From an uncultured Clostridia bacterium (GTDB lineage Bacteria > Bacillota > Clostridia > Christensenellales > UBA1242): DNA of 64,000 nucleotides. Below are positions 36,049-39,804 of the stretch, piece after piece. A program made the translations under genes and the position numbers. The notes below the pieces were generated by a model, which was not told the DNA's origin, did no database searches, and saw nothing but the letters and a program-made list of their open reading frames with translations. Within the stretch, counting starts at the first letter, position 1. Each line of letters starts with the position of its first letter. The stretch is taken from assembly GCA_944350115.1 (NCBI GenBank), contig CALVNZ010000001.1, positions 157,378 through 221,377 on the forward strand. The letters run 5' to 3'.

Positions 36049-38082
36049 ATGCAGGAAGAAAAAAAATATTTAAAGACCGTTGAAAATGCAATAGATGAAA
36101 ACGTCACTCGCTTTGAAGAAGAAAAAGAAATTGAAAAACAAAACTACAATCGCGCTCAATCAGAATTGTCTACATGGTTTTACGATTGCGACAGCATTGA
36201 ACTTTCTCGTTATAAAATGATGATTTCCGAATCTGAAAACAGAATAAAAACATTGTCATCAAAAATTGAAATGATGAAAAAATTGAAAAACAGACCATAT
36301 TTTGCAAGAATTGATTTTAAAGAAAAAAACGCAAAAAACTCCGCTCCTTATTATATTGGTCTTTCATACGTAGCTCTCGATGAAAAAGCTTTCGTTTATG
36401 ACTGGCGCGCTCCAATAAGCAGTATGTATTATAATTATGACGAAGGCCCTGCCAAATACGAAACGCCTGATGGCGAAGTTGAAGGCGACATCACTTTAAA
36501 ACGCCAATACAACATTCAAAACGGCGAATTAAAATATTACATAGACACAAAGCAAACAATTAACGATGAAATCTTGCAACAAGTTTTAAGTCAACACGCC
36601 TCCGCCAAAATGAAGCAAATTGTATCAACAATTCAAAAAGAACAAAACGAAATTATTCGAGAAGAAAAATTCAGAACTATTTTGGTTCAAGGGGTTGCTG
36701 GATCAGGCAAGACAAGCATTGCACTACATAGAGCTGGCTATTTGCTTTACAACCATAGAGATGATTTTTCCAGCAATGATGTGCTGATTCTTTCCCCTTC
36801 AAATCTTTTTTCAAGTTATGTCAGTGAAGTCTTGCCAGAACTTGGCGAAGAAAATGTAATTGAAATGACTTTTTCTCATATCGCAAAAACGGAGCTCAAA
36901 AAAGTCATTGAACCGCGTGAAAAACTGATGGATGAAATCTATAAAAGCAAAAATCAAAAGAAACTTAACGAAATCGCTTACAAAGCATCATTTTCTTATC
37001 TTGAAGATTTGTTAAAATTTTTAAAGGAAGTTTACGCGAGCTTGTTTGATCCAAAAGATATGCTTTTTAAACCTGCAGATGCAAAAGAAGACACTTACAA
37101 CGCTTTTTACTTTCCAAAGGAAGAATTAAAAAAACTATATTTTGAGATTTTTGGTTCGCTTCCAATCAATAAAAGAATTGAATATATGACGGAAGCTTTG
37201 ATTGAAAGATTTGGCTTGTCTCCAAAAGAAACAGAATTAATAAAGCCTAGATTTAAAAATATGCTTTACAAATTCTTTCCGCTTTCAGATATTTATAAAA
37301 TTTGCGAGGTTTTTTATGCAAGACAAAAACTCGCCATCCCTTCATTTGAAGATCTTGCATATGAAGATGTTGCAACTTTGCTTGTAATAAAAGAATACAT
37401 TTTCGGGCTTGAACATGACTTTTCAACCAAATATGTCATAATCGATGAAATGCAAGATTTTTCCCCAGTTCACTTTTATTTATTTAATCACATTTGGGAT
37501 TGCCCAAAAATCATTTTAGGCGACATAAATCAATGCATAGAAAAGACACTTTCGAAGAAATATCTTTTGGAGCTTTCACGTTTCTTAAAGGCCAAACTAA
37601 TAATTCTTAATAAAACCTATCGCGCAACCAGACAAATCGCAGAATTTAGCGAAAAGATTATTGGTTTGAAGGGCGTGGTAAACATGAGCCGTGAAGGAAC
37701 TGCACCAAGAGTGATAAGAACAAACAGCACTGAACATGCGCTATTAAAACTCATTGATGATTTCCGTGGGAAATTTGACCATACCGCAATAGTTTGCAAA
37801 ACAGCAGATGAAGTTGAAAAGGTTGCAAAGATGCTGAAAGGTCGCGAAGAATTTGAAATCATTGTTGGATCAGACTACTCCTTTGACTATCCTCTTGTCA
37901 TAACAACCGCATCAACCTCAAAAGGAATAGAGTTCGATCATGTCATAGTTCCTTTTGCTGACAAAGACAATTATCACTCGTCTCTTGACAAAAACATGCT
38001 TTATGTTGCATCAACAAGAGCATTGCATCAGCTTGAATTTGTTTACGAAGGCCATCGCTCAAAGTTTTTGAAAAAAGCATGA
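36049..38082 (+). CDS. helD: HelD-like superfamily 1 helicase/RNA polymerase recycling ATPase
   Basis: HelD pries stalled RNA polymerase off nucleic acid in Gram-positive bacteria. The 677-residue product starts with a long antiparallel coiled coil (1-80, including SSKIEMMKKLKNRPYFARIDF), then APYYIGLSYVALDEKAFVYDWRAPISSMYYNYD, a HelD-specific region. Walker A is in VQGVAGSGKTSIALHRAGYLL (about residue 215), then KYVIIDEMQDFSPVHFYLF, LNKTYRATRQIAEFS and TTASTSKGIEFDHVIVPFAD near the end. These are UvrD-type motor motifs. Length is a little short of Bacillus HelD (774). It is a single gene with its own promoter. Confidence 0.9.
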   Translation: MQEEKKYLKTVENAIDENVTRFEEEKEIEKQNYNRAQSELSTWFYDCDSIELSRYKMMISESENRIKTLSSKIEMMKKLKNRPYFARIDFKEKNAKNSAPYYIGLSYVALDEKAFVYDWRAPISSMYYNYDEGPAKYETPDGEVEGDITLKRQYNIQNGELKYYIDTKQTINDEILQQVLSQHASAKMKQIVSTIQKEQNEIIREEKFRTILVQGVAGSGKTSIALHRAGYLLYNHRDDFSSNDVLILSPSNLFSSYVSEVLPELGEENVIEMTFSHIAKTELKKVIEPREKLMDEIYKSKNQKKLNEIAYKASFSYLEDLLKFLKEVYASLFDPKDMLFKPADAKEDTYNAFYFPKEELKKLYFEIFGSLPINKRIEYMTEALIERFGLSPKETELIKPRFKNMLYKFFPLSDIYKICEVFYARQKLAIPSFEDLAYEDVATLLVIKEYIFGLEHDFSTKYVIIDEMQDFSPVHFYLFNHIWDCPKIILGDINQCIEKTLSKKYLLELSRFLKAKLIILNKTYRATRQIAEFSEKIIGLKGVVNMSREGTAPRVIRTNSTEHALLKLIDDFRGKFDHTAIVCKTADEVEKVAKMLKGREEFEIIVGSDYSFDYPLVITTASTSKGIEFDHVIVPFADKDNYHSSLDKNMLYVASTRALHQLEFVYEGHRSKFLKKA

Positions 38083-38186: not shown

Positions 38187-38218
38187 AAAAAAGGCTAGAA
38201 TTAAAAAATCCAGCCTTT
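38187..38218 (-). terminator. minus-directed terminator in the helD-hisS gap
   Basis: AAAGGCT (38190-38196) pairs with AGCCTTT (38212-38218), and on the minus strand a T tract follows. No minus-strand gene that it could serve is evident, so it may end a short transcript from the repeat region. Confidence 0.55.
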
Positions 38219-38223
38219 CAGAC

Positions 38224-38338
38224 TGTGGAAATGTGGATAACTTGCCCAAAGTTTTCCACTTAACCACCATAAACCGACCTTTTGTATAAAAATAAGCACT
38301 TTTGCATAAATATTTGTTTGTGGAAATGTGGATAACTT
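38224..38338. repeat. two 20-base direct repeats containing DnaA boxes
   Basis: The copies are 95 bases apart and identical over 20 bases. In the other orientation each reads TTATCCACA directly followed by TTTCCACA: one consensus and one near-consensus DnaA box in tandem. Confidence 0.85.
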
Positions 38339-38440: not shown

Positions 38441-38469
38441 TTGACAAAAAACAAATAATAGGCTAAAAT
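38441..38469 (+). promoter_or_regulatory. promoter of hisS-tmk-uvrC
   Basis: TTGACA (38441-38446) and TAAAAT (38464-38469) are 17 bases apart. No T-box sequence is seen between it and the hisS start. Confidence 0.75.
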
Positions 38470-38499: not shown

Positions 38500-39804
38500 A
38501 TGCAAAACAGAAAAATCGTTCCAAGAAAACTTGCTGGTTTTTGGGAACTTGAACCTGAAAAAGAATTATTGTTTGAAACCATGCTTGACAAAATTAAGCA
38601 GGTGTTTTTAAAATACGCTTTTTTGCCTTTGGACACTCCTGTGATGGAGCTTTCGGAAATTTTGCTTGCAAAATCAGGTGGCGACATAGACAAAGAAATT
38701 TATCGCATAACAAAAGGATCAACGGACGCTTGTTTAAGATATGATTTCACCGTTCCTCTTGCTCGTTATGTTGCAATGAATGAAGGCTCGCTCACTTTCC
38801 CTTTTAAAAGATTTCAAATCGGAAAAGTTTACAGAGGTGAACGCCCACAAAAAGGCAGGTACCGTGAATTCTATCAATGCGATGCAGACATTATCGGCAA
38901 CGAAAAACTTTCAATGGTCGCAGACGCTGAATGCATTTGTCTTTACAAAGACATCTTCGCTTCCTTGGGGCTTAAAGGGGTTGTTGAAATATCAAGCAGA
39001 AAACTTCTGTTTTCCTTGGTTGAAGACTTAGGTTTGAAAGAAAAATTTAATCAAATCGCAACCATACTCGACAAGTTTGACAAGATTGGCGAAAAAGAAG
39101 TTTCATCGCTTTTGCAAGAACTTGATATTTGCGAAAAAGCGACAAACTCGCTTATCAAATTTGTTTCAATAAAGGGTGATTTTGAAAACATAGAAAAGTC
39201 ACTAAACTTTGTGTCAAAAAGCACAGCTTTTAAAGAAGCCCTTGAACAACTCAAACAACTAGACCAATTTTTAAAAAACATGAATGCTGAAAATTCTTAC
39301 ACATTTAACATGGGCATTATTCGTGGGCACAACTATTACACTGGCACAGTTTTTGAAGCTTATTTAGATGGCAAAAGAAATCTCGGTGCTGTTGGTGGCG
39401 GTGGAAGATATGACGATCTTGCTAGTTATTTTTCTGAAAGAAAACTTCCAGGCGTTGGCATGAGCATTGGAATCAGCAGACTGTTTGACATTTGTCTTCA
39501 AAACAATTTGCTTGATTCAAATTTTACAGCCAAAAACAAACTTTCAATTATTCCTCTTGGAGACACTTTAAATCAGTGTCTTACATTATGTTCACAAATT
39601 AGAAAAGAAGGAATTGCTTGCGATGTGATGTTTGAAGAAAAAAGCTTTAAATCCAAATTAAAAGATGCAAACAGGCTTGGCGTTCCTTTTGTTGTGATTA
39701 TTGGAGAAGACGAAGTCGCTTCTGGAAAGTTCGCAGTCAAGAACATGGAAACGGGCGAACAAAAACTTTTAAGCAAAGAAGAACTAATAAAACAAATGAG
39801 GTAA
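38500..39804 (+). CDS. hisS: histidyl-tRNA synthetase
   Basis: HisRS is a class II synthetase. The 434-residue product has motif 1 around FLPLDTPVMELSEIL, motif 2 in FQIGKVYRGERPQKGRYREFYQCDADIIG, the histidine-specific loop GIIRGHNYYTGTVFEAY, motif 3 in GVGMSIGISRLFDI, and a C-terminal alpha/beta anticodon-binding domain. Length is normal. A GAGGAA site precedes the ATG. It is followed after three bases by tmk. Confidence 0.95.
   Translation: MQNRKIVPRKLAGFWELEPEKELLFETMLDKIKQVFLKYAFLPLDTPVMELSEILLAKSGGDIDKEIYRITKGSTDACLRYDFTVPLARYVAMNEGSLTFPFKRFQIGKVYRGERPQKGRYREFYQCDADIIGNEKLSMVADAECICLYKDIFASLGLKGVVEISSRKLLFSLVEDLGLKEKFNQIATILDKFDKIGEKEVSSLLQELDICEKATNSLIKFVSIKGDFENIEKSLNFVSKSTAFKEALEQLKQLDQFLKNMNAENSYTFNMGIIRGHNYYTGTVFEAYLDGKRNLGAVGGGGRYDDLASYFSERKLPGVGMSIGISRLFDICLQNNLLDSNFTAKNKLSIIPLGDTLNQCLTLCSQIRKEGIACDVMFEEKSFKSKLKDANRLGVPFVVIIGEDEVASGKFAVKNMETGEQKLLSKEELIKQMR

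What the first reader, a model, noticed from the sequence alone, without database searches (positions are those of the whole stretch)
38224..38338. Repeated DnaA boxes between helD and hisS: candidate replication origin or DnaA-controlled site
Two identical 20-base repeats (TGTGGAAATGTGGATAACTT) 95 bases apart each hold a perfect DnaA box plus a near match, with a further reverse match between them, in an unusually long (417-base) AT-rich gap. I noticed no other perfect TGTGGATAA in the window. Gene direction fits an origin here: gyrBA and nearly all housekeeping genes to the left run leftward, and helD, hisS, tmk, uvrC and the tRNAs run rightward. The usual neighbours dnaA, dnaN and rnpA-rpmH are not in view, so this would be a rearranged origin.
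Basis: partly seen in the sequence, partly recalled or inferred. Interest (0 to 1): 0.7.

Follow-up and report, generated by a model that had tools for sequence, protein, structure and literature searches.

The report
DnaA–ArgR control site, not the origin
The repeated DnaA-binding sequence is real and has been kept for a long time in a family of uncultured gut bacteria, but it is not the replication origin; it looks like a separate control site where the replication starter protein DnaA, and probably the arginine-sensing protein ArgR, bind side by side.

Summary
TGTGGAAATGTGGATAACTT occurs at 38224-38243 and 38319-38338, exactly 95 bp apart, in the 417-bp helD-hisS gap. It is not the origin: the single dnaA lies 72 kb away, cumulative GC and AT skew reach their minimum there, and the dnaA-dnaN gap has its own DnaA-box cluster. 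The same 17-base double box occurs near dnaA, where oriC lies, in 12 relatives, which supports DnaA as the ligand.
The element is conserved: 35 of 36 sampled congeners keep at least one intact double box beside hisS/helD, and 80 genomes share the two-pair architecture in several gene contexts. Spacing is 85, 93-96 or 104-105 bp, i.e. whole helical turns, with at least three independent 10-bp changes. Between the pairs lie two ARG-like boxes 20 bp apart, one touching the second pair. In the 865-kb genome the exact tandem motif occurs twice: here and in the argR promoter. ArgR is kept although argininosuccinate synthase appears to be missing.
Best reading: a non-oriC DnaA-binding control locus of the datA / DnaA-box-cluster kind, with ArgR where datA has IHF. 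DnaA and ArgR binding and the effect on initiation are inferred. Local control of hisS is the main rival. I found no described precedent in the searchable literature.

The parts
38224..38243 (+). DnaA double box 1: TGTGGAAATGTGGATAACTT (a weak plus a perfect DnaA box, head to tail)
   Evidence: sequence; conserved in the genus; same 17-mer near dnaA in 12 relatives. Binding itself needs an assay.
38252..38260 (-). weak reverse DnaA-like box (read TTTTCCACT on +)
   Evidence: sequence only; not conserved between relatives
38281..38298 (+). ARG-like box 1: TTTGTATAAAAATAAGCA
   Evidence: ligand ArgR inferred
38301..38318 (+). ARG-like box 2: TTTGCATAAATATTTGTT, 20 bp after box 1, touching double box 2
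   Evidence: ligand ArgR inferred
38319..38338 (+). DnaA double box 2: TGTGGAAATGTGGATAACTT
   Evidence: as for double box 1
36049..38082 (+). helD-like UvrD-family helicase gene, left neighbour (context only)
38441..38469 (+). predicted promoter of hisS (TTGACA-17-TAAAAT), separate from the element
   Evidence: 11 of 12 matches; consensus match only
38500..39804 (+). hisS, right neighbour (context only)

Best explanation
A single-copy, conserved, non-oriC DnaA-binding control locus. DnaA binds two identical double boxes. A protein at the tandem ARG-like boxes between them, most likely an ArgR hexamer, bends the DNA so that the two DnaA groups, kept on one face of the helix, can meet. The likely result is sequestration or inactivation of DnaA, as at datA or the B. 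subtilis DnaA-box clusters, possibly tuned by arginine. Shown by sequence: the anatomy, its conservation, the phasing, the motif shared with argR, the double box shared with the dnaA region of relatives, and that this is not the skew-defined origin. Inferred: binding by DnaA and by ArgR, bending, and the effect on initiation.
For: Not the origin. Conservation at one locus with diverged neighbours. Same architecture in other gene contexts. Double box recurs 0.7-1.6 kb from the DnaA domain in 12 relatives. Helical phasing with at least three independent 10-bp changes. Tandem ARG-like motif exact in 105 of 112 genomes, control 0; two sites in the window's genome, this one and argR. Element-derived profile finds the argR promoter. 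Match to published ARG consensuses above shuffles. argR kept in 70 of 72 good genomes while argininosuccinate synthase appears absent. datA needs IHF and correct spacing.
Against: No binding or replication data exist. The argR site also reads as a sigma-70 promoter (TTGCAT-17-TATAAT), so the shared motif could partly be promoter sequence. The ARG-like boxes in the window are imperfect (13-14 of the consensus positions). Other tandem sites in relatives are not at arginine genes. One 98% complete genome (G097) has the element but no argR match. The element keeps its orientation to the downstream gene in nearly all loci, which also fits local gene control. The distance to oriC is not constant.
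Confidence: 0.5

Rival explanations
1. A local transcription control region: DnaA and ArgR (or another factor) jointly regulate the gene downstream, hisS here and mrnC or metG in relatives.
For: The downstream gene runs away from the element in nearly all loci. The tandem motif at argR overlaps a promoter-like sequence. DnaA is a known transcription factor in B. subtilis (PMC4447404, abstract).
Against: hisS has its own strong predicted promoter 102 bp further on and many relatives have one at varying positions. The distance from element to hisS varies from 96 to 1852 bp, with another gene in between in two genomes, while the inside of the element is strictly phased. The downstream gene differs between genera.
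Confidence: 0.3
2. The replication origin, or a second origin.
For: Several DnaA boxes in an AT-rich gap, gyrBA nearby.
Against: Skew minimum and dnaA are 72 kb away, with a box cluster there; variable and sometimes large distance to dnaA in relatives.
Confidence: 0.04
3. DnaA-binding titration site in which the inner AT-rich motif binds some other protein (for example another nucleoid protein) or is simply a promoter or a bent AT tract.
For: ARG boxes are AT-rich and imperfect here; the argR site is also promoter-like.
Against: The tandem motif is specific: reversed control 0 in 112 genomes, and its main second location is the argR promoter; in the window the second hexamer would be CATAAA, a poor -10, and TGC/TGT alternate in relatives.
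Confidence: 0.13
4. A chance or mobile repeat without function.
For: Two identical 20-mers in one intergenic gap.
Against: At most one copy of the pair per genome, same locus in 35 congeners with neighbours 39-82% identical, the only conserved non-coding stretch of the gap, phased spacing.
Confidence: 0.02

Closest known systems
E. coli datA (DDAH locus)
   Same: Intergenic, non-oriC locus with a few DnaA boxes around a site for a DNA-bending protein, where spacing matters (PMC10380432)
   Different: datA uses IHF and four boxes in another arrangement; no sequence relation was tested; ATP hydrolysis not testable here; here the middle site looks like ArgR's
B. subtilis DnaA-box clusters (DBCs)
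   Same: DnaA-box clusters outside oriC in a Gram-positive; deleting six of them advances initiation (PMC5295017)
   Different: Several per genome; the review found reports no partner protein in them; here one phased, conserved element
E. coli DARS1 / DARS2
   Same: Non-oriC DnaA-box loci; DARS2 needs IHF and Fis (PMC10380432)
   Different: DARS have a core of three boxes I-III; here two identical direct double boxes
ArgR operators (ARG box pairs), including the argR promoter
   Same: Pair of about 18-bp ARG-like boxes 20 bp apart, same tandem motif as in the argR promoter
   Different: Not in front of an arginine gene; flanked by DnaA boxes; boxes imperfect
ColE1 cer accessory site
   Same: ArgR used as an architectural protein away from arginine genes (PMC5357621)
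   Different: cer serves Xer recombination with PepA; here the partner sites are DnaA boxes

Membership tests
Chromosomal origin (oriC) | Coincides with the minimum of cumulative GC skew | tested here: not met
   minimum at 268-269 kb, site at 195.6 kb; 225 kb of contig C1 examined
Chromosomal origin (oriC) | Next to dnaA/dnaN, as usual in Firmicutes | tested here: not met
   dnaA 72 kb away; at least 214 kb in G004
Chromosomal origin (oriC) | Read-depth peak | not testable with these tools
   no reads available
Non-oriC DnaA-box cluster (datA, DARS, DBC kind) | Several DnaA boxes in a conserved intergenic site outside oriC | tested here: met
Non-oriC DnaA-box cluster (datA, DARS, DBC kind) | Bound by DnaA | not testable with these tools
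   indirect only: same double box near dnaA in 12 relatives
Non-oriC DnaA-box cluster (datA, DARS, DBC kind) | Deletion or extra copies change initiation timing | not testable with these tools
   needs a cultured or surrogate host
datA proper | IHF site between essential DnaA boxes | not tested
   the middle site was read as ARG-like, not scanned for an IHF consensus; IHF genes were not searched
datA proper | Promotes hydrolysis of DnaA-bound ATP | not testable with these tools
   biochemical assay
ArgR operator | Pair of ARG boxes at about two helical turns | tested here: met
   offset 20 bp in element and in argR promoter; consensus matches above shuffles but imperfect in the window
ArgR operator | An ArgR with both domains in the genome | tested here: met
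   PF01316 and PF02863
ArgR operator | Motif found at arginine genes | tested here: inconclusive
   found at argR in 76 listed sites, otherwise at gyrB-like/murG and others, not arginine genes
ArgR operator | Arginine-dependent binding | not testable with these tools
   needs a binding assay

The most novel reading that the evidence does not exclude
In this reduced family ArgR has lost arginine biosynthesis as a target and serves mainly as the architectural partner of DnaA at a datA-like site, so that arginine supply directly tunes when the chromosome starts to replicate.
Probability: 0.3. Interest if true: 0.85.

Novelty: new variant of a known kind. Interest (0 to 1): 0.62.

Why it matters
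Control loci for DnaA outside oriC are well worked out in E. coli and only partly in B. subtilis. A conserved, phased DnaA site with an ARG-like operator inside it would be a new wiring of replication control in uncultured gut Clostridia, would explain why a 0.87-Mb genome apparently without argininosuccinate synthase keeps argR, and gives a directly testable link between a nutrient sensor and the initiator.

Tried and rejected
Origin at this site: rejected by skew and dnaA position. Mobile repeat: rejected by single copy and synteny. My first count of the ARG offset as 21 bp was wrong; it is 20. Simple promoter reading of the ARG pair: not excluded, but the window's second hexamer is CATAAA and TGC/TGT alternate freely in relatives. 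Other tandem sites were expected at arginine genes; they lie mostly between a gyrB-like gene and murG, so that test gave no arginine genes, although several of those sites are near-perfect palindromic ARG boxes. Literature searches joining ArgR or AhrC with DnaA boxes found only Xer/cer papers or papers without both. The Anaerolineales hit L182 is a different repeat with unrelated neighbours.

Full report
What is there. The two 20-mers sit at 38224-38243 and 38319-38338 in the 417-bp gap between helD (36049-38082) and hisS (38500-39804). Each holds a perfect DnaA box (TTATCCACA on the minus strand) and a weak one eight bases away. Pfam confirms HisS and a UvrD-like helicase for the neighbours.

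Not the origin. The window is C1:157378-221377 of a 0.87-Mb, 99% complete genome in 9 contigs. It has one dnaA, at C1:268 kb. Cumulative GC and AT skew fall through the site (195.6 kb) and reach their minimum at 268-269 kb. There dnaA and dnaN lie side by side (domains confirmed), with a recF-like gene divergent from dnaA and rnpA beyond dnaN (gene names other than dnaA and dnaN are mine, from the protein sequences). The dnaA-dnaN gap and the end of dnaA carry four boxes with at most one mismatch. The skew was computed on 225 kb, not the whole genome. Among relatives whose listed positions I compared, the element shares a contig with dnaA only in G000 (72 kb) and G088 (58 kb); in G004 it must be at least 214 kb away.

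Conservation. In 35 of 36 sampled congeners a locus with the double box (at most two mismatches) lies between helD and hisS, whose proteins are 39-82% identical, or at the end of a contig beside one of them. In a group of these relatives the second pair is altered to TGTGGATAAGTGGAA. The exact paired pattern occurs in 50 of 112 genus genomes, at most once each, with no hit of the reversed control. An 801-bp query across the gap aligns to most relatives only over coding ends and the element. A scan of about 85,000 genomes gave 81 loci, nearly all uncultured Clostridia or Christensenella MAGs. In about 22 of them the element precedes a mini-RNase III-like gene (mrnC) with an rlmB-like methyltransferase, or metG, instead of hisS; these names too are mine. 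In a sample of 396 genomes of the order the right half of the element was found only in the family of the window, in four genera.

DnaA as ligand. Of 39 further copies of the 17-mer (at most one mismatch) in 16 relatives, 13, in 12 genomes, lie 0.7-1.6 kb from the DnaA AAA+ match. In G036 the exact 20-mer lies between dnaA and dnaN. So the double box appears to be an origin-type DnaA unit re-used here.

Phasing. Start-to-start distances are 95 (58 loci), 85 (10), 93-96 other than 95 (7) and 104-105 (5, one of them the unrelated hit L182), i.e. close to 8, 9 and 10 helical turns. On a HisS tree the 85-bp label needs four changes, at least three of them forced by well-supported branches. By eye, the length change lies in the variable left part; the right part, from the ARG-like boxes to the second pair, keeps its length in the 85- and 95-bp classes.

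ARG-like boxes. Between the pairs lies TGYATAWWWAT twice, 20 bp apart, the second box touching the second DnaA pair. Searched exactly in 112 genus genomes the tandem motif is found in 105, the reversed control in none. In the window's genome there are two sites: this one and one in the argR promoter region, 289 bp in coordinates from the start of the ArgR-domain match. Of the 150 listed sites 76 are at argR and 45 at the element; several of the remaining 29 look like elements or argR promoters on split contigs. I generalised the pattern after seeing both places, so the independent test is the profile built from elements only: it finds the argR promoter region as best or second-best site in nearly all of 31 argR loci. 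Published ARG consensuses (PMC4865122) match the elements better than dinucleotide shuffles in all three context groups; L149 matches the Streptomyces consensus 18 of 18. These sequences are related to each other, so the shuffle comparison overstates independence. The argR site also reads as a sigma-70 promoter, a confound. Other tandem sites, many of them palindromic, lie between a gyrB-like gene and murG or near rplM, not at arginine genes.

ArgR without arginine synthesis. ArgR has both domains and is found in 70 of 72 good genus genomes. Argininosuccinate synthase gives only weak matches (own best 18.7 bits; two genomes barely over the 27-bit cut-off; all 14 controls ring). Arginine catabolism and transport were not tested.

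How it most likely works. I propose that DnaA loads on both pairs and that ArgR, discussed as a DNA-bending architectural partner at cer, shapes the middle so that the pairs meet on one face, as IHF does at datA. The outcome would be less free or less active DnaA, as for datA and the B. subtilis clusters. The alternative that it regulates hisS is weakened by hisS's own predicted promoter, by the variable distance and by the change of downstream gene, but not excluded, because the element keeps its orientation to the downstream gene in nearly all loci.

Relation to known kinds. It works like a non-oriC DnaA-box locus; the box feature of that kind is met, the functional ones are untestable here. 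It is not filed as datA or DARS. The ArgR partner is, as far as the searchable literature shows, undescribed; most subscription papers were not searchable.

Noticed in passing
L296, L298, L300, L304-L309, L311, L313 (centre of each): The same tandem ARG-like motif recurs in relatives between a second gyrB-like gene and murG, an unexpected place for ArgR sites.
   Followed up: partly
L301, L302 (centre): Tandem palindromic ARG-like boxes (TGTATAAATATACA) upstream of a gene that reads as ribosomal protein L13 (rplM).
   Followed up: no
L128 1246-1698 (argR) and genus genomes: argR is kept in 70 of 72 good genomes of a reduced genus in which argininosuccinate synthase appears to be absent.
   Followed up: partly
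L016 4058-8588: Unusual origin gene order: rnpA, dnaN and dnaA on one strand with the box cluster between dnaN and dnaA, and a recF-like gene divergent from dnaA.
   Followed up: partly
   Followed up: no
G097 (98% complete): Has the element with intact ARG-like boxes but no ArgR match; could be an assembly gap or loss of ArgR.
   Followed up: no
L114 2993-3140 (G036 dnaA-dnaN gap): The exact 20-mer of the finding is present in the origin region of this relative.
   Followed up: yes
L182 1563-1683: Anaerolineales contig with repeated TGTGGATAACT units; an unrelated array of DnaA-box-like sequence.
   Followed up: no
window 38190-38217: Inverted repeat (AAAGGCT...AGCCTTT) between helD and the element, a possible terminator for helD.
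   Followed up: no
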